From Trichostrongylus colubriformis (taxonomy: Eukaryota; Nematoda; Chromadorea; Rhabditida; Trichostrongylidae), in the NCBI GenBank assembly GCA_963978905.1, contig OZ022260.1, positions 45,777,551 to 45,841,550 on the forward strand: DNA of 64,000 bases, read 5' to 3'. The translations under genes and the position numbers were made by a program. This document shows, in pieces, positions 13,988-59,177 of the stretch. The notes beneath the pieces are model-generated. The model saw only the letters and a program-made list of their open reading frames with translations. It made no database searches and had not been told where the DNA came from. Position 1 is the stretch's first letter. Every line of letters starts with the position of its first letter.

Positions 13988-14603
13988 TACTCAGAATTTA
14001 TTCCAAGTTCAATCATTCGGGATTCCTCGCTAATGATCTCATCGACTAGGCATACGGACTATCCGAAGTCTCATGATTATCTGAATGTTGAACAGCAATT
14101 GCCACTCCAAAATATTTATTCAACTAAACTAAAAGACCCCTTAAAAGTCACGAAATTTTTGAGGAATATTTTTGCGTACTCAGAACTTATTCCAAGTTCA
14201 ATCATTCGGGATTCCTCGCTAATGATCTCATCGACTAGGCATACTGACTATCCGAAGTCTCATGATTATCTGAATGAACTTATTCCAAGTTCAATCATTC
14301 GGGATTCCTCGCTAATGATCTCATCGACTAGGCATACTGACTATCCGAAGTCTCATGATTATCTGAATGTTGAACAGCAATTGCCACTCCAAAATATTTA
14401 TTCAACTAACCTAAAAGACCCCTCAAAAGTCACGAAATTTTTGAGGAATATTTTTGCGATATTTCCGTGTTCAACACATTTTTGAGGCCCTGCCAAAGAC
14501 GTATGTTGCTATCGCGAAAATATTCCAAAAAACTTTCGAGACTTTTGAGGTGTCTTTCGAGTTTTTTGAATAAATATTTTGAGTTTCAATTATTGTTGAA
14601 CAT
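13988..14603. repeat. A-B-A-A-B repeat with inverted B copy
   Basis: Unit A (about 93-100 bp, containing CATTCGGGATTCCTCGCTAA) occurs at 13988, 14177 and 14277. Unit B (89 bp, ending GAGGAATATTTTTGCG) occurs at 14088-14176 and 14370-14458. A diverged inverted B lies at 14513-14603. The repeat offsets are 189 and 93 bp, both multiples of three, so one plus-strand frame stays open through all copies (13985-14485). The same peptide pattern appears on the minus strand from the inverted B. It looks like mobile-element DNA; coding is not shown. Confidence 0.75.
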
Positions 14604-26174: not shown

Positions 26175-26369
26175 CGCTGGACGTGATGCGACGAGAACAC
26201 CATTGTAGAATAGGGGCTGGGCCCATCATAAACCACCAGGGCGTCCAAAAAGTTCGGAGAGAATTCTTCTCCTCAACTTCGAATGCGCCAATGTAAAACT
26301 ATGTAGCAATTGTTGAAAAAGGGTGCTGTCGATAGACTGTTGCTCACATAACACGTTCAGCAATAAGTA

Positions 26370-27268
26370 TTAGGTTGATTCATAATAAATCGGACAAATG
26401 GTAGTGATGATTTCTAGAGATCATAACTCAGTAACGAATTAACGAAAATGGACGCGCGAGGTACCGTTGGAATGAGTATGAAAAGCTCTTCAAAGTACCG
26501 CAAAATAATCACTCCAAAGTAAATTCATTCCGCCACAATGCCGCACGATTTCAAGCGGTCCAGAGACCACATCCGCAACGTCATACTATTTATATCGCTA
26601 TCTGGCCAGGAACCCGCGGATATCGGCAGACGTCTGATAGAAGTTCACAAGGAGCATGCCCCCGGCAGAGGTACACTGTAGTTGTAGCATTCGAAGTTTG
26701 CGTCAGGCGACTATTCCATCGAAGACGAAAACCGCGGTTGGTGGAGCGTACACGGCGTAGAGTACTGGGAGCTGCTCGATGAAGGTACCACAGTTTCCGC
26801 CGACGTCTACGTTCGTCAATTACGAGAATTGAAGGCCAATGTCCAAAGTTCGCTACGGCGGCGGTCACACGTCTACTTCCAGCACGACAACGTGTCTACT
26901 TCCACAGACCGCACTTCGCAAGATCGACCAAGGCCGAGCTGCTGTCGTACAGTTGGACCGTACTTCCATACCCACCGTACTCCCCAGACCTGGCCCCTTC
27001 AGATTTCCACCTTTTCTCCCACAGCCAACGCCACCTGGACGGCCAAGACTTCAAAACTCGCGACGAGGTCAAGGCGGCACTCGGCAACTTCTTCGAGCTC
27101 CAGCTTCCGGCCTTCTGGAGCAAGGGCATCCATGATCTGCCTATACCGTGGCAGAAGGTCATCGATAAAGATGGAGTATATTTCAAGTGAATCCCTGTTG
27201 TCGTAAAAAAGTTGTACGACAATGATTAAAATTGGTCAATTTGTCCGATTTATTATGAATCAACCTAA
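26370..27268 (+). mobile_element. mariner element, internally deleted, intact ends
   Basis: An 899-bp element with terminal inverted repeats of about 30 bp starting TTAGGTTGATTCATAATAAA on both ends. A TA duplication flanks it (26368-26369 and 27269-27270). The interior is a broken mariner transposase. An N-terminal start lies at 26538 (helix-turn-helix region), with a stop at about 26680. Middle and C-terminal pieces follow: a GVEYWELLDEGTT-like block, the HDN of the second catalytic Asp near 26885, PYSPDLAPSDFHLF near 26980, and a C-terminal GVYFK end at 27189. At least one frameshift (about 26895-26910) and a central deletion are needed to explain the arrangement. Full mariners are near 1.3 kb, so roughly 0.4 kb is missing. 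It is non-autonomous, but the ends could still be mobilised. Confidence 0.9.
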
Positions 27269-27603
27269 TATTCTACATCGCCGCTGGAAGTAAGTTGTCG
27301 TCGACCGAACTCTGTGCTACCGACGGGACTGCCGGCGCCTTCTGCTTCACTACTACACATCTGCACACTCCGGCACTCACGCCCAAATTGAGTCATGGTC
27401 TACCACAGGCAGGAGTGCATCCTCACTTGTCATCTGAGTTCGATCGTTTTTCTAGCGAAGATATTTGCCTCCATGGAATTCCTCGGAGTGGAGGATGACG
27501 TCCTCTAATACCGACTTCGTTCTAGTCGCTACACGAAAGGATATCTTCGAAGAAGAAATGAGTAAACGACTTCGACTCTCCATTTTTAACATTCACACAT
27601 TCC

Positions 27604-28345: not shown

Positions 28346-28898
28346 ATAAGTATCGATATCTTGTGCACCACCGTAAACCCTGCGGGGATTGTGATCGAAA
28401 AAACCCGTTTGTTTTCCGTTCCCTTCTACTTCAATTACAAGTTTTGCTGGGAACTGAAGAGTAGGGAAACAATCGTGCGTAGTACCTTTGGGTTTGCCCC
28501 CTCCCCCATAATTCCTTACCTACAAACACATCCATGTAAGGTTTTCTCTAGGGATTTCGGTGGACGTTTTATTGGCGAATTTTCAGATGTTTTCGCTCAG
28601 ATGTCCCGATGCCTTTCTCTACTTGTCGCAATACTCAATAAACGTCTCGAGTAGAATGTTGACAACGAGGAAATTGCGTGAAGCAGCTAACACTTCACTT
28701 GGGGATCTGTGGGGATCCGCCTATTACACACCTGTCTAACAGGAAAAGACTAGTTTCCTAGTTTGGGATTATATATTCATAGGCCAGGGCATGAAAAAAT
28801 AGACGGATGTTTAATAATTCGACTGAATTTTCTCGGAACTATCAGGACACAAGTTCCAAGAAAGGTCTCAGAAGATGCTATGAGCAGATGTGATGTTA

Positions 28899-29324
28899 AA
28901 GGAATCGTCCACGGAAAATGCGCTTTTGTGTTACCCATACGTTTATGTTGTATTTGCCTGATGTGGGCCTCATGCAAAATTTCACGCGAAAAAATGCGAA
29001 TCTGGCTGAGATACAGCACCACAAAGTGCGGTCCCAGTGGGCGGGGCCCAGGAGTAAAAGCCTCGTCCCGTGGTCCGCCGCCGTTGGGAACGGAGAGTGG
29101 GACTGTTTACGAAACTTACTGCTCCTACAATGCGTCTCCGACCACGGCGGACGACGGAACGAGGCTTTTCTCTTAGGCCCCGCCCACTGGGACCGCACTT
29201 TGTGGTGCTGTATTTCAGCCAGATTCGCATTTTTTGCGTGAAATTTTGCATGAGGCCCACATTAGGCAAATACAACATAAACGTATGGGTAACACAAAAA
29301 CGCATTTTCCGTGGACGATTCCTT
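28899..29324. mobile_element. Fold-back element, copy 1
   Basis: A 426-bp palindrome with inverted ends AAGGAATCGTCCACGGAAAA and a TA (or TTA) duplication (28897-28898 and 29325-29326). The arms carry ACCCATACGTTTATGTTGTA and GGGCGGGGCC in mirrored order around a short centre near 29110. Every open frame here is repeated on the opposite strand because of the symmetry, so none is a gene. Confidence 0.85.
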
Positions 29325-29326
29325 TA

Positions 29327-41200: not shown

Positions 41201-44200
41201 CGGAGAAGCTATGAACGATGGAATCACATTAACAGACAATTCATGCTATTAGTGCTATTATATTAACTGTGATATGAACATCGGACCATAGGCAGGACAA
41301 AAACGCAACTGAAGTTCGATAAGAAAAACATAGAAGCTATGATAACAAGACGGATGATACCAGAAACCGAATATTCAGCACCCGTACGGGTAGCTGTCGG
41401 GTGGCAAATTCACCAGCGGACCCTAACTACGACAGCCATCAGGTAGGTAGATGATTCGGATTTTTTCTAATTTTACGACGATCAGCTTCCAGATTATTGG
41501 AACAATTATAATCCAGTCTAGGCATCTACCTTTAATCAAATGGGTCAAAATTGCTTCAGTTTTTGGACGTTCCGGGACCGCTGGCACCACAGGTTCAACA
41601 GACACCCTTGATTTCCAATTATCTTTTGTTACTTCGTTGTCAAGGGAAGAAATGTATCTCCAATTTTTCTTGTATGAATCGTTTAAGGGTTGACGCACTT
41701 GGTTAATAGAATGCAAGTGCAGCTTCGTACCTGCTCTCCCGTGGCGAGCTTCCGTCGTTGTTCACGCATGTTATCACCGCACTGATTCATGATGAAATAA
41801 CCATGGCTCAGTGTAGCACAGCGTTTGAACGCCACGTATTTGGATATTTCCACTAACTTGCTGACTGCCTGGAAAACAGTGCAATTCTGTGATGGAAATC
41901 TTCACTCCTATGTAATAATCAACAGTTTTGCAAAAAGGGACAATCAGATTTCAAAAGGGAACGACATGTCGACCTTTCCTTGCGAGACCCACATATATAG
42001 CAACCATATTTGTACTTATTTCATAAATTTCACGATGTTTTCTCGATGTGAAAACTCACTTTTACGACATCCTTTGAACTGTCATTGATAACGTATGCGT
42101 TGATCACCACTGTCTCTCCAGGCACGAAACCAGTCTTGGGAATCTCACACTAAAAACAAATCCGCAACATAAAGAAAAGTCCTTTACGAGAGACCCTCAG
42201 TAAGTCAAAAATAAAACTCAGCATCGTGCCATGTTAAACGGTTAAAGGGCCGGTGAATGTGTTCCCGTTACATGGCATAATGCTAAATTCAGTGATATCC
42301 CCTACTTCCCAATGTTTACATGGTCTTCACAACCGCAACTTCTGCCTTATCTCACCGTATCCAAGCCACTTCTGGTACGTCACTGCCGACAGCAAACACG
42401 TCGAAGGGTAGGCGGGAACGCACTACATGACGGAGACGAGCTGGATTAATTAGTTCTGTGCGATTCACAGACTCATCTTCAGCCTAGCTAAAGGTTCACT
42501 GGTTGTGGTTTCAGCTATGTGGCCCAGAGGGACCTTGAGCCAGTGTGCTTTCAAGAGCAGGCTTAGTTAGAGACTCTTTATGAAACTTATACACCCCGGT
42601 AGGTGGGTATCTTTTGGATGTACCTGGGTTAACAGGGGAGAGACGATACGATGATTAATTCTCCTATCATCACATCTCGTCTTCGGCGATTCTAGGAATC
42701 AATCTCTACAGTTTATTCTCTGATCATCGATTTACAACGTCCAAAGACGCAACGCATGATGCTATCACGCCCGCGTGCAATGTCCCAGGCGACCACAGAG
42801 GTACATATAGTGACGACAAACCTGTACAGACACCTTGCCATGTCTGAAAAGCACGATGCCCAAATTTTTCGCCGTCGACTCCTTAATGGGCATTGCAGCA
42901 TCAGGTATCGTGTTCAGGTCGAATACAGGTACCACTGAAATTGATACTCTTGGTGAACAAGAACAACGTTTGTCGGGATTTCCAGATAACTGCGCGCTCC
43001 CGATAAATTTTTCTTCAATAAGCTACACTCTGCTGCTAAGATTTTTGCTTAGGAACAACACTTATTTGTACGTCGCCCTCTGTCTTTACAATGACCTCAG
43101 AAAAATTCACTGAACCCTCTTATGTCCACTTATTTTCAGCGTTATGCTAGCAGAAGTTGCGCTCAATCAGTACGTCCCTACGCATAGTTATGCATTTTTC
43201 AATCAGCTCACCTGTGAAAAGACGCTTGTCGGTTTTGTTAAAGCGCCACGGTCGATCTAGTTCAACCTTCACCATGTAGCGTATGTACCCATTTAAACCT
43301 GTAAATGATAGTTTTGAAATTAGAAAATGATAGTATTCAGCTGGCATGCTCTTCGGCAAACCCGAAAAAAACGACGGCAGTGATTCAAATGAAGATAAGA
43401 CCGGACAGAAATTCTCAAAACCAACTATATCGCACCCACGCATCCTTCTGGTAATAATCCCTTCGACTTGCCCCTCCATACTCCTTCACATTACTGGCAA
43501 ACGCATCCATGGTCGTACTCACCTCCCTTGACTTCACGTCGGTTTGTGCCGCGTATTGCTACCTTCCGCCCTGTGGTTTTGCCCTTCCCACAATTCTCCT
43601 CCTATCGTTCGATGCCCAAGGAGACACGCAATTGATAGTATTACAGTTCATTTCGAAGCGCTTAATAGGGCGTGGCTTACGGAGTTGGGTGTGAGTGGAT
43701 CAAACTCTCTCACCACGCCACACACTCGTTCTCGCCACACACTCTCACTCTCGCCAGCCAGGCCACGCCCTATCTAGCGCTGTGAAGTGCACTGTATTCA
43801 TTCCCACAGAACATGGCACATTTCACTTCACAGCTGCGTCATTTTACAAGGGATCGCCTGTGGACACCTCAGTTCTCAGCTAACCATCAGCTAACCACCT
43901 AACTCTACTGATTCCATCTTTACCTGCTGCAGCAGGATAGCGAAGGGAATTTTTTGCAGATTCCCTTCTAGCATAAAAATGCATCTGAATGAGTATCCGA
44001 CGATGACAATGGAATACGGTTACAGTCGAGAAGGACAGCAGGTATTCTTATTCCCAAATGAGTATGTATGCTGACACCTCCGAGGCTATACGAAAAGGTA
44101 TGAAAGGTTCGAGTAGCCCGGACGATTCGATCCACTGTTTGTTCCCTAAACGGTTCAGCGCTACCCTCTGCCACTACCCACCTCACTCCTTGTTCTGCAC

Positions 44201-47200: not shown

Positions 47201-50200
47201 GGCACTTTTCGACGGGGATTTGCCTAGACTAATCTTTTCAGGCCCATAGTTGTTGTGTGAGTGACTTCTTTTAGAAATTTCCCATTAACCATATCGTCCC
47301 TAATGCTGTCTTCAGGTCATCAACGTACCGAAAGAACGCTTGGAAAACTAATTGGGTATTAAGGTGTTAATGTGTATAAAACAACAATATTCAACACGTA
47401 CTAGTTGTTGAGTGCTTGCATTTCGGGCTTCAAGTAGCAATAAAACGAATAAAAATGACGGTGGAGGATAAATAAAATAATGAACGGAAAGACAAGTGGC
47501 AAATAAAAATTTACAAAAAAAAAAAACTTAAAACGCAAGATGAATACGCCTACTGTCGCTGTACCATTTTTGCATATTATCACAACACCTTGCTGTAGAA
47601 ATTCGCTCACCCATCATTGTTCCTGAAATAAATGTCTGTCAGATAATTCTACAAAAAAATATGGTAAAGCAAACTATTAGAATGATAAAAATAAAGGAAA
47701 ATATTGGAATAAATATGCAGAGTTTAAGCATTGAGTACGTGCACAATTAGAGGTGTTCTCCTTTCCCTTCTATAGAAAATAAAGCAAAACACTGAGAAAA
47801 GTAAGGTCTTCCATAGTATCATAACCTATACATAAACCAGGAGTTTGGTGTGTCTGTTTGCTTGTTCGTTTGTTTGTCTGCTCTCCGATTCTCGGTGTTA
47901 CCACAGAAACAAGTTGCAGAGATCGAGTAAAGTTCGGGTTGGAGCATGGTCCAAGATGTGCGGAGCGCACATAGACCAAGTGGGGCTACGCCCATAGTAA
48001 GTGGGGCGCGCACTGCAAAGACTTCAGCTCAATGCGGAAATTCCACGATTCGTTTCAGAATTGCTCGGATTCTGAAAGGAGAGGCGAACATGAGTCCAGG
48101 GTATTGTAACGGATACAAGCATCACTTCCTTCAAGCAACTAGGTCCTTGGATAAGTACTGAGACTGCATCGTTGTTCCGGCTGCACGGCGCAACCTCACG
48201 GTGCCGTGCCTGCTTGAACACGGATATGTACCCTAATGTCAGGATGCCGCACGATGGCGAGCGGCGTGCGACACAGTGTGTGCGAGCTATGCGCGTCGCG
48301 GTAGTTGGGTCTCAAAACGATTACAACGTAATGCTAGGAGTGCGATACGCAGTTGACTTCTAATCGTTTCGGGACCCAACAATTTAGCTCGTCCGCATTG
48401 CTTCGCTTGCGACATTCCGCAGTGCGGCATCCTGACATTAAGGTACACATCCCTTGAACACAACCAAGCCACGCCCACTCAACCAGATCACACCTGACCT
48501 TAAACGAACATTTTTCAATGTGGAAGTTACTTACATTATCGAATTGGCTGTTTCACAAAATTCTCTTCTTTTTAACTCAAGTTTCTTTCTCCACGCGATC
48601 GCCACGTTGTAAATTGGTTAGTCAAAGGCTAGCTGTAATCTGGTTGGGTGGGCGGGGCTCGGTTGTGTTCAAGCAGGCACAACTCCGTGAGGGTGCACCG
48701 TGCAGCCGCAACAAAAGTGCAGCGTGAACAGTTATCTCAGAAACTTTTTGCCTTGAGAACCTTCTTCCCAGACAAAAACCTAAATTTGCAATAATTTTTC
48801 CTCAGCCATGATCGAACCATCAACCTTTTTCTTGACATTCATAGGGCTGCTCAGGAAAAATGAACATCAATTATGTTTCAGGCACGCATCTCCATGATGC
48901 GAAACACGGCTTTTGAACTTCTTTTGTGAGAAATTTATCTTCAACTGAAACTTCCAAAAACTACCTGATTGTTCTCGATCGCGTCACCTTCCAATGAGTA
49001 TGAGCTCTTCCGTCGACTGATATTCGTAATGATCTAGCCTAAATGGCAGATTCAGAGAACTGTGGGTGACCTGACAGTTTCCGACCATTGTTTTAAGAAG
49101 TCACGGCACCACAGCTATGCGGGGGGGGGGGGGCGATTCACTATGGCAACGTCGAAAATAAAATTCTTATGAGATTAAAGCTTTATATTCGTAGATCGTA
49201 GCCAAGATCAATAGCAAATCATTCGGCTCGTGAAGGAACCCAGTCAGGTCCATGTTTGCTTGCAATGCCTCACTGGCGAGGCATTTTGCTATCATCGCGA
49301 TAATGTTTGTCAGACAATGGCTTTGGTGGCTTAATGGTAGAGGGCCGGGATGTTGAGATCTTTTGCATTTTGTGTTTCATCGTCAATAAGTGCCTCACTT
49401 ACACTTCTGAACGTTTCCTTGTACTAGGACCTATGCGCACTAATCAACCGCGGAGATTTGAGTAATGTTGTTAATTTTTAAAATGAAATGGCAGTGTAAA
49501 TGACGGTGCGAAGAGGTGCCAGTACAATGAAAGTTCAGAAGTGAAACTGAAGCAGTTGCTGACGATGAAACAAAAAAATGCAAAAAGATCCGCACCCGCG
49601 GAAAGCAAACCTTCGACATCTCACGTACAGATCCGAAACAAGCCGTTGTTTCCTCACCAACCAGCCGCTCTCGACAAAGTGCCTCGCCATTGAGACATCA
49701 CGAGCAAGTTTTTGACCCTTCCTAGCTCGCTTCAGAATGGTATTTTGCAATTCTGGTTTTCACAGTTATAGGCAGTATTCGGACCTCTACCGACCCACCT
49801 GGGCTTCAATTCAAAGTTCCATGGAGAGTTAAAGCCCTTCCGTGGTTAGTGGAAAACAAATAAGAAGAAATAAGAAGCAAACACTTCGAAAGATTTTTAA
49901 GAAAGATTAGTAAATCAAAATAGTTAAGTGGTTCCTCTCGCATCTACTCTTACGAGCCACTGTGTTAGCAAACCATGACTCCGAAGAAATATCTTTTTCA
50001 TTTAATGGCCAAATGGATGGAAAAAAGTTTCTTTCTCCTCCACGCTCCCTTGATGGTCTAATTGCTACAGTCAAAAAATTCGAAAATTCAAAAAAATTTA
50101 CCTTTATAGACTCCTTGAGTTCAAGATGAACGACACCATCCACACTTGTTCCCGGATAAAAAACACCTTGTGGATTCGAGTATGATATGCATATAGAACT

Positions 50201-50209
50201 GCTTGGCAT
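38270..50209 (-). CDS. alpha-Arrestin (arrestin-domain protein), 14 exons
   Basis: Alpha-arrestins are cytosolic adaptors that link membrane cargo to WW-domain HECT ubiquitin ligases. Minus-strand exons: 50209-50102, 49038-48965, 46706-46618, 43967-43924, 43413-43362, 43298-43212, 42934-42834, 42149-42060, 41868-41731, 41668-41591, 39819-39757, 38805-38601, 38488-38409, 38356-38270. Every junction is GT-AG and phases agree, giving about 431 residues. The N domain shows FYPGTSVDGVVHLELKESIK, VDGRAHTHW and NGYIRYMVKVELDRPWRF. The C domain shows FDLNTIPDAA, PKTGFVPGETV, a VPPTVPTFNCCPIVCVEY strand and IIVGTIP. The tail has PPPPPSYEEA (a PPSY motif near residue 382) and PRYPFYP. The exon 3 donor (46618 used; 46607 is stronger but off-phase), exon 5 acceptor and exon 10 limits are the least sure. 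Introns carry many MITEs. The family is widely expanded in nematodes (arrd genes); the orthologue is not assigned. Confidence 0.87.
40694..41073. mobile_element. Fold-back element, copy 2 (arrestin intron)
   Basis: A 380-bp relative of 28899-29324, starting AAGGAATCGTCCACGG and ending CCGTGGACTATTCCTT. TG (or TTG) lies on both sides. It shares the GGGCCACATGCAA and CCGCGGCGGACGACG blocks. It lies in the intron between the exons at 41591 and 39819, so the open frames here are not coding. Confidence 0.82.
43666..43772. mobile_element. Short MITE (TAGGGCGTGGC ends), copy 1
   Basis: A 107-bp element with TAGGGCGTGGCTTACGG on the left and GGCCACGCCCTA on the right. The interior is rich in CTCTCACTCTCGCC. 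It sits in an arrestin intron. The second copy is at 52627-52735. Confidence 0.75.
46406..46435. repeat. G-homopolymer cluster
   Basis: A long G tract broken by single T residues inside an arrestin intron. Similar G runs lie at about 47177-47196 and 49121-49133 in the same intron region and at 9401-9416. They could form G-quadruplexes on the plus strand (C-rich in the pre-mRNA) and may be assembly-error prone. Confidence 0.8.
46815..47311. mobile_element. TTAA-type element, head-to-head fragment plus copy
   Basis: 46815-46910 is an inverted left-end fragment containing CCTGTTACTAGGCAT. It runs directly into a direct copy at 46913-47311 that begins AGGCAGCGTTAGGGG and ends CCCTAATGCTGTCT. The junction TTACCCCTAACTGCC/GGCAGCGTTAGGGGTAA is therefore palindromic. 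The element is related to 3026 and 4389. It lies in an arrestin intron. Confidence 0.6.
47837..47905 (-). repeat. CACACCAAACTCCTGG junction motif, inverted copy
   Basis: On the minus strand the sequence reads CAGACAAACAAAC, then CACACCAAACTCCTGG, then TTTATGTATAGGTTATGAT. The same order occurs at 59222-59270 and, in part, at 57297-57328. It is therefore the conserved end of a repeat family and not a chance microsatellite. Confidence 0.65.
48171..48712. mobile_element. Fold-back element interrupted by a MITE
   Basis: The left arm GGCTGCACGGCGCAACCTCA...CCTGCTTGAACACAACC and the right arm (48633-48712) are inverted copies, reading on to CTCAACCAGAT. The left arm is split by the element at 48222-48453; the right arm is intact. 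It sits in the second arrestin intron. Confidence 0.75.
48222..48453. mobile_element. hAT-like MITE (GTACCC family), copy 2, nested
   Basis: A 232-bp element with ends GGATATGTACCCTAATGTCA and its near complement. It has a perfect 8-bp duplication TTGAACAC (48214-48221 and 48454-48461). An inner inverted repeat (GTTGGGTCTCAAAACGATTA / TAATCGTTTCGGGACCCAAC) matches the copy at 13011-13258. Confidence 0.88.
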
Positions 50210-50240: not shown

Positions 50241-50286
50241 ACTATTCATCTATCACCCTATACACCGTCACTTGGTCAACAAATTA

Positions 50287-51667
50287 TTGGGTTGGGGAAT
50301 AAGTCCCCGCCGTTTTTTTCAACCCCGTTTTTCACATTGTTCCCTCCATCTTTCGACCAAGGCAATATATGTTTTCGATAGAGCTTTTCTTGCTCTACAC
50401 AATGCTACTATCTGTTTTTCGATTTCTTCGACAACCTGATATTTATGAGGTTTGGAAATGAAGTGAGCTGAAGGCAAAAAAGTGACACTTGCGCACCTCA
50501 TCTTTCTCGTCTGCCATCAAAATCAAAAAATGTATGTGCACACGTTTTCGATAAAGCTTTTTCAGCTCTACAAAATGGTACCACTCTTTATTCAAATCGT
50601 TCAAGTTTTTGCTGTTTTTAAGACTTACAAATGCAGTACTAGCAAAAGTGTGCTTTTTCGTTATCTCCTTTTCCTCGCCTACCATCGAGATTGGAGAGGG
50701 TGTGCATATATGCATTCGATAGAGCTCTTTTTGCTCTACAAAACGATGCCTTTCCTCTTTTGTATCCTCTCATATTTTAGCATGTGGGAGTAAGTCTCCA
50801 CGTGTTTTTCAATTCAAAATTGCGTAATGAAAACAAATACTTTTGGCAGATTGTTTTGTATCGTTCGATAGAGCTTTTTTCGCTCTATATGATAGTAATT
50901 ACGGCTTTTGTTCAAACTGATTTTTGACATTTTTTAGATCATTTAAAAGTCGACGAAATCGAGCATTTTTGTCACATGGTGTCGAAAATGCTCGATTTCG
51001 TCGACTTTTAAATGTTCTAAAAAATGTCAAAAATCAGTTTGAACAAAAGCCGTAATTACTATCATGTAGAGCGAAAAAAGCTCTATCGAACGATATAAAA
51101 CAATCTGCCAAAAATATTTGTTTTCATTACGCAATTTTGAATTGAAAAACACGTGGAGACTTACTCCCACATGCTAAAATATGAGAGGATACAAAAGAGG
51201 AAAGGCATCATTTTGTAGAGCAAAAAGAGCTCTATCGAATGCATATATGCACACCCTCTCCAATCTCGATGGTAGGCGAGGAAAAGGAGATAACGAAAAA
51301 GCACACTTTTGCTAGTACTGCATTTGTAAGTCTTAAAAACAGCAAAAACTTGAACGATTTGAATAAAGAGTGGTACCATTCTGTAGAGCTGAAAAAGCTC
51401 TATCGAAAACGTATGCACATACATTTTTTGATTTTGACGGCAGACGAGAAAGATGAGGTGCGCAAGTGCCACTTTTTTGCCTTCAGCTCACTTCATTTCC
51501 AAACCTCATAAATAGCAGGTTGTCGAAGAAATCGAAAAACAGATAGTAGCATTGTGTAGAGCAAGAAAAGCTCCATCGAAAACATATATTGGCTTTGTCG
51601 AAAGATGGAGGGAACAATGTGAAAAACGGGGTTGAAAAAAACGGCGGGGACTTATTCCCCAACCCAA
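50287..51667. mobile_element. 1.38-kb near-perfect palindromic element
   Basis: The left arm (50287-50971) and right arm (50983-51667) are inverted copies of 685 bp each around an 11-base spacer. They differ at only scattered positions. Ends read TTGGGTTGGGGAATAAGTCC and TA flanks both sides (50285-50286 and 51668-51669). The end sequence recalls mariner termini (TTRGGTTGG...AAGT). Each arm holds four mini-hairpins of the form CGATAGAGC-loop-GCTCTAC (left arm at 50376, 50549, 50717, 50866). The mirrored open frames on both strands (about 103 and 90 codons) are a product of symmetry and are not taken as genes. Confidence 0.95.
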
Positions 51668-51831
51668 TATTTTCGCTTAATCTTTGCAGAGGGTCAGTTG
51701 GGGTGCCGATCACGAAAATTTTATCCGTCTTTGACGCTAGCGTCAATTTGACGCAAGTGAATTAAATTGGTGCAGCCATCTAGCTTACCGATTCACATTA
51801 AGCTGTTTTCAGTTGAATTCAGGAGTAATTC

Positions 51832-54445: not shown

Positions 54446-57279
54446 ATTATGGCCGGGCTGGGCTTAGAACTTATGTACTCTATACACAGGAGGTTGACGT
54501 GTACAGAGTACATAAGTTGGGTGGGTTGACTCCTACCCAATCCTAACCTGCCCGACCTCCACACACCCGTACCTAATTTGCTTCTTGTGTGCTCCCTACA
54601 TTTTGGTCTGTCCCTATCCAGTTCCTACTCGCACGACCTGAGCAGTCCCATTCCTGACCTTCCCGATTTTCGGAACCCATGCGAGGGTTTATAAATTTGA
54701 GTACCCATCGGTTCCGTCGCAGGCCCCGTCCATGGTGGGCGGAGCTAAGCTTAAAACTTATATGCTCCGTACACATGACCCCTACTCAATCCTAACCTGC
54801 CCGACCTCCACAGGCCCGTGCCTTATTTGCTTGTTGTGTGCACCCTTCACTTTGGTCAGTCCCTCCCCAGTCTTAACATGCGCGACTTCAACAGACCCTT
54901 TCCTAACTTGCCCGATTTTCCGCACTTAAGCGAGGACCTAAATTCGTTTATTCATTGATTTCAGCGCAAGCCCAGCTCATGGTGGGCGGAGGTAGGCTTA
55001 GAACTTATGTGATCCATACACTTGTGTTTGCCCCCACGCTATCCTAACTTGTCATACCTCTACAGGCCCGTTCTGCTCCTTGTGTGCTTCCTACAATTTG
55101 GTCAGTCTCTACCCACTCCTTACTCGCACGACCTGAGCAGTCCCATTCCTGACAGTCCCGATTTTCGGAACCCAGGCGAGGACTTAAATTGGAGCACCCA
55201 TCGGTTTCGGCGCAGCCCCCCCCTATGGTGGGGGGAGTTAGGCTTAGAACTTATGTGGTCTGTACACTTGGTCCCTACCCAATACTAAGCCTGCCCGACC
55301 TCCACTGCCCGTGCCTAATTTGCTTGTTGTGTGTTCCCTTTACTTTGATCAGTCCCTCCCCAGTCCTTACATGCGCGACTTCAACAGACTCTTTCCTAAC
55401 TTGCCCGATTTCCAACACCTGAGCGAGGACCTAAATTCGTTTATTCATCGATTTCGGCGCGAGCCCAGCCCATGATGGGCGGAGGTAGGCTTAGAACTTA
55501 TGTGCTCCATACACTTGTGTTTGCCCCTACGCTATCCTAACTTGCCATACCTCTACAGGCCCGTTCTGCTCCTTGTGTGCTCCCTACTATTTGGTCAGTC
55601 TCTACCTACTCCTTACTCGCACGACCTGAGCAGTCCCATTCCTGACCGTCCCGATTTTCGGAACCCAGGCGAGGACTTAAGTTGGAGCACCCATCGGTTT
55701 CGGCGCAGCCCCCCCCCCCTATGGTGGGGGGAGTTAGGCTTAGAACTTATGTGGTCTGTACACTTGGTCCCTACCCAATACTAAGCCTGCCCGACCTCCA
55801 CTGCCCGTGCCTAATTTGCTTGTTGTGTGTTCCCTTTACTTTGATCAGTCCCTCCCCAGTCCTTACATGCGCGACTTCAACAGACTCTTTCCTAACTTGC
55901 CCGATTTCCAACCCCTAAGCGAGGACCTAAATTCGTTTATTCATCGATTTCGGCGCGAGCCCAGCCCATGATGGGCGGAGGTAGGCTTAGAACTTATGTG
56001 CTCCATACACTTGTGTTTGCCCCTACGCTATCCTAACTTGCCATACCTCTACAGGCCCGTTCTGCTCCTTGTGTGCTCCCTACTATTTGGTCAGTCTCTA
56101 CCTACTCCTTACTCGCACGACCTGAGCAGTCCCATTCCTGACCGTCCCGATTTTCGGAACCCAGGCGAGGACTTAAGTTGGAGCACCCATCGGTTTCGGC
56201 GCAGCCCCCCCCCCCCCTATGGTGGGGGGAGTTAGGCTTAGAACTTATGTGGTCTGTACACTTGGTCCCTACCCAATACTAAGCCTGCCCGACCTCCACT
56301 GCCCGTGCCTAATTTGCTTGTTGTGTGTTCCCTTTACTTTGATCAGTCCCTCCCCAGTCCTTACATGCGCGACTTCAACAGACTCTTTCCTAACTTGCCC
56401 GATTTCCAACCCCTAAGCGAGGACCTAAATTCGTTTATTCATCGATTTCGGCGCGAGCCCAGCCCATGATGGGCGGAGGTAGGCTTAGAACTTATGTGCT
56501 CCATACACTTGTGTTTGCCCCTACGCTATCCTAACTTGCCATACCTCTACAGGCCCGTTCTGCTCCTTGTGTGCTCCCTACTATTTGGTCAGTCTCTACC
56601 TACTCCTTACTCGCACGACCTGAGCAGTCCCATTCCTGACCGTCCCGATTTTCGGAACCCAGGCGAGGACTTAAATTGGAGCACCCATCGGTTTCGGCGC
56701 AGCCCCCCCCCCCTATGGTGGGGGGAGTTAGGCTTAGAACTTATGTGGTCTGTACACTTGGTCCCTACCCAATACTAAGCCTGCCCGACCTCCACTGCCC
56801 GTGCCTAATTTGCTTGTTGTGTGTTCCTTTTACTTTGATCAGTCCCTCCCCAGTCCTTACATGCGCGACTTCAACAGACTCTTTCCTAACTTGCCCGATT
56901 TCCAACACCTGAGCGAGGACCTAAATTCGTTTATTCATCGATTTCGGCGCAAGACGCGCCCATGGTGGGCGGAGCTAGGCTTAGTTCTTATATGCTCTGT
57001 ACGCTTAGATCAGCTCCTACCCACTCCTAACTCGCGCGACCCTCCAGGATACAGTTGAGATGAGGCCCTACGGAGTCTTAACTTGCCCGATCCCTACAGG
57101 CCCACTCTTGATTTAGCCGATTTTTTCAACCATTTCTGCGCAAGCCCCGCTCACGGTGGGGAGAGCAAGGCTTAGTTCTTAATGAGCTCCGCACACTTTG
57201 GTCAACCCCTACCCATCCCCAACTTGTCCGACCTCTTCACGTTGCCATTGAGTTGAGAGTAGATTATGCGACAAAAAAC

Positions 57280-57724: not shown

Positions 57725-59177
57725 CACAGCTGCGTCGCCATTCGCCTTTCGAGGCTCCTTATCAGCCCTTATCAGTTGCTATCACTTCCGTTCCCTCACC
57801 ATTAATGTCCCCTTACCACCCCTACATTACCTTGAATATTGAGGATCCCAGCTTTGCTGCGACGCGAGATATGAATTTCCCGCCATTCGCCTTTCGAGGC
57901 TCCTTATCAGCCCTTATCAGTTACTATCACTTCCGTTCCCTCACCATTGATGTCCCCTTACCACCCCTACATTACCTTAAAAATTCAGGATCCCAGCTTT
58001 GCTGCGACGCGAGATATGAATTTCCCGCCATTCGCCTTTCGAGGCTCCTTATCAGCCCTTATCAGTTGCTATCACTTCCGTTCCTTCACCATTAATGTCC
58101 CCTTTCCACCCCTATATTATCTTAAAAATTGAGGATCCCAGCTTTGCTGCGACGCGAGATATGAATTTCCCGCCATTCGCCTTTCGAGGCTCCTTATCAG
58201 CCTTTATCAGTTGCTATCACTTCCGTTCCCTCACCATTGATGTCCCCTTACCACCCCTACATTACCTTAAAAATTCAGGATCCCAGCTTTGCTGCGACGC
58301 GAGATATGAATTTCCCGCCATTCGCCTTCGAGGCTCCTTATCAGCCCTTATCAGTTGCTATCACTTCCGTTCCTTCACCATTAATGTCCCCTTACCACCC
58401 CTACATTACCTTGAAAATTGAGGATCCCAGCTTTGCTGCGACGCGAGATATGAATTTCCCGCCATTCGCCTTTCGAGGCTCCTTATCAGCCCTTATCAGT
58501 TACTATCACTTCCGTTCCCTCACCATTGATGTCCCCTTACCACCCCTACATTACCTTAAAAATTCAGGATCCCAGCTTTGCTGCGACGCGAGATATGAAT
58601 TTCCCGCCATTCGCCTTTCGAGGCTCCTTATCAGCCCTTATCAGTTGCTATCACTTCCGTTCCTTCACCATTAATGTCCCCTTTCCACCCCTATATTATC
58701 TTAAAAATTGAGGATCCCAGCTTTGCTGCGACGCGAGATATGAATTTCCCGCCATTCGCCTTTCGAGGCTCCTTATCAGCCTTTATCAGTTACTATCACT
58801 TCCGTTCCCTCACCATTGATGTCCCCTTTCCACCCCTATATTATCTTAAAAATTCAGGGTCCCAGCTTTGCTGCTACGCGAGATATGAATTTCCCGCCAT
58901 TCGCCTTTCGGGGCTCCTTATCAGCCCTTATCAGTTGCTATCACTTCCGTTCCCTCACCATTGATGTCCCCTTGACACCCCTACATTACCTTAAAAATTC
59001 AGGATCCCAGCTTTGCTGCGACGCGAGATATGAATTTCCCGCCATTCGCCTTTCGAGGCTCCTTATCAGCCCTTATCAGTTGCTATCACTTCCGTTCCCT
59101 CACCATTGATGTCCCCTTAACACCCCTACATTACCTTAAAAATTCAGGATCCCAGCTTTACTGCGACGCGAGATATT
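57725..59177. repeat. 145-bp satellite, about 10 copies
   Basis: The unit contains TTCCCGCCATTCGCCTTTCG, CTTATCAGCCCTTATCAGTT and GGATCCCAGCTTTGCTGCGA. The ATGAATTTCCC landmark falls at 57871, 58016, 58161, 58306, 58450, 58595, 58740, 58885 and 59030, giving a 145-bp period with one 144. 145 is not a multiple of three, so frames change from copy to copy and the open frames are not genes. Two sequence subtypes (TTACCACCCCTACATTACC and TTTCCACCCCTATATTATC) alternate irregularly. Confidence 0.95.

What the first reader, a model, noticed from the sequence alone, without database searches (positions are those of the whole stretch)
50287..51667. 1.38-kb near-perfect hairpin element 78 bp upstream of the arrestin start
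Two 685-bp arms with an 11-base spacer and TA flanks. The only room for an arrestin promoter or outron between element and ATG is under 80 bp, so the element may supply it. If transcribed, it would fold into a long double-stranded RNA that could feed small-RNA silencing of the neighbouring gene and of relatives such as the solo arm in the Nudix gene.
Basis: partly seen in the sequence, partly recalled or inferred. Interest (0 to 1): 0.8.

Follow-up and report, generated by a model that had tools for sequence, protein, structure and literature searches.

The report
Self-matching palindromic mariner-type transposon
The 1.4-kb hairpin beside the arrestin gene is one of hundreds of copies of a gene-less jumping element made of two mirror-image halves, and the halves of a copy appear to overwrite each other from time to time, so they stay more alike than the copies do.

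Summary
Window 50287-51667 is a 1381-bp, TA-flanked palindrome with 685-bp arms (15 mismatches, 97.8%) and an 11-bp spacer, 77 bp from the arrestin ATG. It is one of a dispersed family. Its 20-base terminus occurs 745 times exactly in the 331-Mb genome. Of 68 loci that hold the first 100 listed termini, 61 have both ends and 7 one end. TA duplications, A/T-biased targets and a terminus like the Himar1 mariner ITR point to a non-autonomous, fold-back, mariner-type transposon; no helper was found. The arms are the surprise. Copies differ by 13% on average, but the two arms of a copy by 5%. For two old copies searched genome-wide, the partner arm is 97% and 95% identical, while the best other long match is 84% and 88%. 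Young copies show partial tracts where one arm overwrote the other. Best reading: recurrent arm-to-arm conversion inside inserted copies (template switching/quasipalindrome correction). The window's own copy does not itself show such a tract. The "solo arm" is a truncated fragment.

The parts
50287..51667 (.). palindromic (fold-back) mariner-type non-autonomous transposon, 1381 bp
50287..50971 (+). left arm (685 bp)
   Evidence: 15 mismatches to right arm
50972..50982. spacer, 11 nt, partly self-complementary (repeat finder counts 3 nt)
50983..51667 (-). right arm (685 bp), inverted
50285..50286 (.). TA target-site duplication, left
   Evidence: TA on both sides in 55 of 61 two-ended loci
51668..51669 (.). 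TA target-site duplication, right
50287..50312 (+). terminal inverted repeat, mariner-like (17 of 26 positions equal to the Himar1 ITR)
51642..51667 (-). terminal inverted repeat, other end
50374..50419 (+). internal motif copy 1 of 4 in the left arm (TTCGATAGAGC...GCTCTA)
   Evidence: D1
50547..50592 (+). internal motif copy 2
   Evidence: D1
50715..50760 (+). internal motif copy 3
   Evidence: D1
50864..50909 (+). internal motif copy 4
   Evidence: D1
51060..51589 (-). stretch with the four mirror copies of the motif in the right arm (51060-51099, 51209-51248, 51377-51416, 51550-51589)
   Evidence: D2
50786..50812 (+). internal, weak second copy of the terminal sequence inside the arm
   Evidence: score 33 against a maximum of 29 in 500 shuffles
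50097..50209 (-). arrestin-domain gene, probable first coding exon (not part of the element)
   Evidence: E=0.00096, below cut-off
43150..43485 (-). frame holding a later arrestin exon
   Evidence: Arrestin_N E=7.5e-8

Best explanation
The element is a non-autonomous DNA transposon of the Tc1/mariner type, made of two inverted ~690-bp arms that meet at the centre. It is presumably moved by a mariner transposase acting on its two ends (inferred; helper not found). After insertion the arms do not evolve independently: from time to time one arm is copied over a stretch of the other (about 100-300 bp in the clearest case), so mutations become shared by both arms of a copy while copies drift apart. 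The likely mechanism is template switching or hairpin/cruciform-based gene conversion between arms during replication or repair (quasipalindrome correction). Shown: palindrome, TA duplications, dispersal, arm similarity above between-copy similarity, shared private changes and partial tracts. Inferred: the enzyme that moves it and the molecular route of conversion.
For: Family: 745 exact termini; 61 of 68 loci with both ends, 44 of 68 full length, TA/TA in 55 of 61; flank A/T 98% at -5 and 83% at -4 in 53 copies chosen for TA on both sides. ITR 17 of 26 equal to Himar1's, reached by 1 of 100000 shuffles, though I chose Himar1 because I recalled it as similar. Concerted arms: mean within-copy distance 5.4% against 13.4% between copies in 54 full-length copies; in 26 of 54 the partner arm is nearer than any other sampled arm; own arms are sisters in 29 of 58 copies. 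Genome-wide searches: arm of L078 finds its partner at 97%, other matches of 600 bases or more at most 84%; arm of L074 finds its partner at 95%, best other 88%, the rest of that length at most 86%. 117 changes seen in both arms of one copy and in no other sampled copy. Partial tracts: longest identical run exceeds a rate-weighted permutation at p<0.05 in 19 of 54 and p<0.01 in 10 of 54; in the young set L034 is R/R at six successive diagnostic sites (arm columns 364-480) but asymmetric at 241 and 509, and L038 is L/L at 480-533. A 149-bp motif-to-motif deletion lies in both arms of L054, in one arm of L082.
Against: 28 of 54 copies, mostly young, are nearer to another copy's arm than to their own partner, and the run test is not significant at 0.05 in 35 of 54. 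The window copy itself shows no tract (p=0.24) and its arm differences are largely those of L010 and L011. Shared private changes lie in longer identical runs than random only modestly overall (p=0.015), and in 4 of the 13 copies listed singly at p<0.05. L054's double deletion could be two independent events, since L082 has the same one in one arm. Part of the pattern could be made in master copies at transposition. The genome searches scored 40 of about 2400 first-look candidates. Only two old copies were tested genome-wide (a third request did not complete). No GC bias of conversion was seen. No transposase with this ITR was found.
Confidence: 0.77

Rival explanations
1. Arm symmetry is remade wholesale at transposition: while a copy is excised or repaired, one arm is copied to form both, and inserted copies then only decay.
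For: Young copies share one asymmetric pattern, as if struck from one master; foldback elements are thought to arise by TIR elongation (stated in PMC4079207, passages seen).
Against: Tracts are partial (L034, L038; 19 of 54), and L078 and L074 carry both-arm changes without a close relative among the scored matches.
Confidence: 0.17
2. One reading: the element gives the arrestin gene its promoter or outron, and its transcript is a dsRNA that feeds small RNAs which silence arrestin and relatives.
For: 77 bp between element and ATG; predicted duplex of -1218 kcal/mol.
Against: No RNA data; several hundred copies are spread over the genome, so adjacency is expected by chance for some gene.
Confidence: 0.15
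3. The palindrome arose once and the arms then drifted independently.
For: A few old copies have arms as far apart as copies are from each other (L057 13.7%, L086 12.8%, L049 12.3%).
Against: Many old copies have arms 3-6% apart with every other sampled arm 10-17% away.
Confidence: 0.02
4. Assembly or read fold-back artefact.
For: Fold-back chimeras are a known long-read problem (recalled).
Against: The same boundaries with TA on both sides at many loci and 2-3% arm differences shared between copies.
Confidence: 0.01

Closest known systems
Tc1/mariner non-autonomous elements; ITR compared with Himar1 (irritans subfamily, subfamily recalled)
   Same: TA duplication, A/T-rich target context, 17 of 26 ITR positions
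   Different: no transposase gene; the inverted repeat is the whole element, not ~30 bp
Foldback elements (Tetris, Galileo, FB; Tm1 of root-knot nematodes)
   Same: long terminal inverted repeats containing internal tandem units (Tetris passages)
   Different: most foldback elements are put in the Mutator superfamily (PMC4079207) with longer target duplications and a middle domain; here TA and no middle domain
C. elegans palindromic families such as PALTA3 and PALTTTAAA3
   Same: DNA elements of a nematode named as palindromes with TA-type targets (names seen in PMC6873666; meaning of the names recalled)
   Different: sequence not compared; arm conversion not examined
Quasipalindrome correction / template switching; Y-chromosome palindromes
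   Same: homogenisation of inverted-repeat arms (PMC8604942 abstract; PMC6649704 passages)
   Different: here in many dispersed copies of a transposon with ~690-bp arms

Membership tests
Tc1/mariner superfamily (non-autonomous) | TA target-site duplication | tested here: met
   55 of 61 two-ended loci have TA on both sides
Tc1/mariner superfamily (non-autonomous) | terminal inverted repeat of mariner type | tested here: met
   17 of 26 with Himar1's ITR; 13 of 26 with each of two mariner ITRs of this genome
Tc1/mariner superfamily (non-autonomous) | autonomous partner with the same ITR | tested here: inconclusive
   four mariners with long open frames fetched; best match to the palindrome's 20-base terminus has 7-8 mismatches; 150 of 7221 first-look candidates were scored, four fetched
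Foldback (FB-like) elements | very long TIRs with internal tandem repeats | tested here: met
   arms 685 bp; in 5 of 6 unit pairs the alignment score exceeds every one of 200 shuffles; the sixth pair was dropped because the pieces overlapped. The shared motif carries much of the score
Foldback (FB-like) elements | Mutator-type 8-10 bp target duplication | tested here: not met
   TA
Quasipalindrome correction | one arm templates the other over a tract | tested here: met
Quasipalindrome correction | event arises by polymerase template switch | not testable with these tools
   needs mutation accumulation or reporter assay

The most novel reading that the evidence does not exclude
The palindromic design is a self-repair device: because either arm can template the other, a damaged end or arm can be restored from its twin, which lengthens the mobile life of each copy and explains why a gene-less palindrome persists in hundreds of copies. 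The family would then be a genome-wide natural record of quasipalindrome correction in an animal.
Probability: 0.2. Interest if true: 0.75.

Novelty: new variant of a known kind. Interest (0 to 1): 0.52.

Why it matters
Long palindromes are usually regarded as unstable in eukaryotes. A family of several hundred near-perfect 1.38-kb palindromes, each an independent insertion of the same starting sequence, is a replicated natural experiment from which the rate, tract length and direction of arm-to-arm copying could be measured. A rough calculation from the means, assuming a star phylogeny, puts conversion per site at about 33 times the substitution rate. It also warns that arm divergence cannot be used to date such elements. 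If transcribed, each copy is a ready dsRNA source, which makes small-RNA effects testable.

Tried and rejected
Autonomous partner: none of four mariners with long open frames (L119-L122) has the palindrome's ends. A 1.28-kb pair of termini on C1 looked mariner-sized, but its middle is arm sequence with a deletion (L123). Insertion in L048 (1.28 kb) is another repeat, no long frame. GC-biased conversion: no difference between shared and single-arm changes (Fisher p=1.0). Rfam: no family in the window. The ITR string was in no paper of the open library by exact letters (7 papers matched only the 12-base pieces). 'Nematode' is an inference; the SL RNA search did not complete.

Arm homology between motif units 3 and 4 was discarded because the two cut pieces overlapped by 24 bases.

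Full report
Observation. The hairpin is real and exact: 50287-51667, TA on both sides, arms 50287-50971 and 50983-51667 with 15 mismatches, 11-nt spacer. Its minus strand folds as RNA into a single long duplex, -1218 kcal/mol. The arrestin ATG is 77 bp away on the minus strand; a first exon (E=0.00096, below cut-off) and a later exon (E=7.5e-8) support the gene.

Family. The 20-base terminus has 745 exact matches in a 331-Mb, 52-contig genome (the first 100, all on contig C1, are listed). These 100 lie in 68 loci. All 68 were read: 44 are full length (1320-1440 bp), 14 have both ends and an internal deletion, 3 have both ends and an insertion, 7 have one end within the fetched stretch. The sample is conditioned on at least one exact terminus and on one contig; scaling gives roughly 500 such loci. 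An arm search scored 40 of 2432 first-look candidates and found 85 matches at 89-100% identity, mostly pairs.

Nature. TA on both sides in 55 of 61, A/T at -5 (98%) and -4 (83%) among 53 copies selected for TA, and an end like Himar1's (17 of 26; the Himar1 string occurs in the papers listed, listing only) indicate a mariner-type element. No frame in the element is a transposase candidate that I could see (frames up to 108 aa lie in the arms; not searched against families). The genome holds many mariners: 150 matches scored of 7221 first-look candidates. Four fetched ones have other ends, so the helper is unknown.

Arm anatomy. Each arm has four copies of TTCGATAGAGC..GCTCTA at 173, 168 and 149 bp, and the units around them align better than shuffles in 5 usable pairs. 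Deletions often run from one motif copy to another (L054, L082, L093).

Concerted arms. Among 54 full-length copies (from 81 sequences: 67 of the 68 C1 loci, 13 chosen as best matches, and the window) the arms of a copy differ by 5.4% on average, arms of different copies by 13.4%; 26 of 54 have the partner as nearest arm. On a tree of 58 distinct copies, own arms are sisters in 29. 117 changes are in both arms of one copy and nowhere else in the sample. To exclude unsampled relatives I searched the genome with an arm of L078 and of L074. L078: partner 97%, the other matches of 600 bases or more at most 84%, with three shorter ones at 86-89%. L074: partner 95%, next 88%, the rest at most 86%. 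In both, 40 of about 2400 candidates were scored.

Tracts. Identical runs are longer than a rate-weighted permutation predicts in 19 of 54 at p<0.05 (2.7 expected), 10 at p<0.01. In 19 young copies, 8 are symmetric at columns 113-509 or nearly so, 11 share an asymmetric pattern. Against that pattern L034 is R/R at six successive sites (364-480), at least 117 and at most 267 bp, and still asymmetric on both sides; L038 is L/L at 480-533; L055 reads as swapped at 113-222, as a double exchange would give. L034's states at 422 and 480 are not those of the symmetric copies, so a copy of that group was not the donor there. An ectopic donor of its own group is not excluded.

Counter-evidence. The window copy shows no tract (p=0.24), and its asymmetric sites are largely shared with L010 and L011. 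Half the copies do not have sister arms; most of these are young. Differences are highest in the quarter next to the centre (651 of 1938), so conversion is weaker there or the centre mutates faster. Enrichment of shared private changes in identical runs is modest (p=0.015).

Mechanism. Arm homogenisation and spacer inversion by template switching are described for yeast inverted repeats (PMC8604942, abstract), and concerted arms for mitochondrial palindromes of Nematomorpha, whose authors cite maintenance of inverted repeats in Caenorhabditis (PMC6649704, passages; the cited paper not seen). I infer the same class of event here. Whether it happens at replication, repair or excision is open.

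The geometry is right; the regulatory reading is untested. The promoter room is short, but the element is one of hundreds.

Novelty. Foldback transposons, mariner non-autonomous elements and arm conversion are each known. I found none that joins them in the searches (listings, open library only), which is weak evidence of absence.

Noticed in passing
window 26368-27270: A degenerate mariner with perfect 32-bp ITRs. L122 (G000:C1:33098047-33099633) has the same ITR and a 368-aa open frame.
   Followed up: partly
G000: 34 of the 150 listed Transposase_1 matches share one score and a 345-aa open frame on C1, C3, C5, C6, C7 and C8, which suggests a very recent mariner burst. Its transposase (L119) is at most 74% identical to anything found, 67% to an Ancylostoma ceylanicum protein.
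   Followed up: partly
window 28897-29326: Another inverted repeat, stacked arms of 97 and 70 nt at 94-97%: a second palindromic repeat in the same window.
   Followed up: no
window 54579-56997 and 57736-59176: Tandem arrays of a 496-bp unit (4.9 copies) and a 145-bp unit (9.9 copies). The insertion in L048 looks related to the second by eye.
   Followed up: no
window 14183-14369: Exact tandem duplication of 93 bp that keeps an open frame.
   Followed up: no
L118: Composite of two truncated copies of the palindrome in the order + - + -.
   Followed up: no
L050 723-1190, L101 731-1040: Two copies of the palindrome carry similar insertions of about 300 bp at the same arm position (about 535), perhaps a short mobile element or one inherited insertion.
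   Followed up: no
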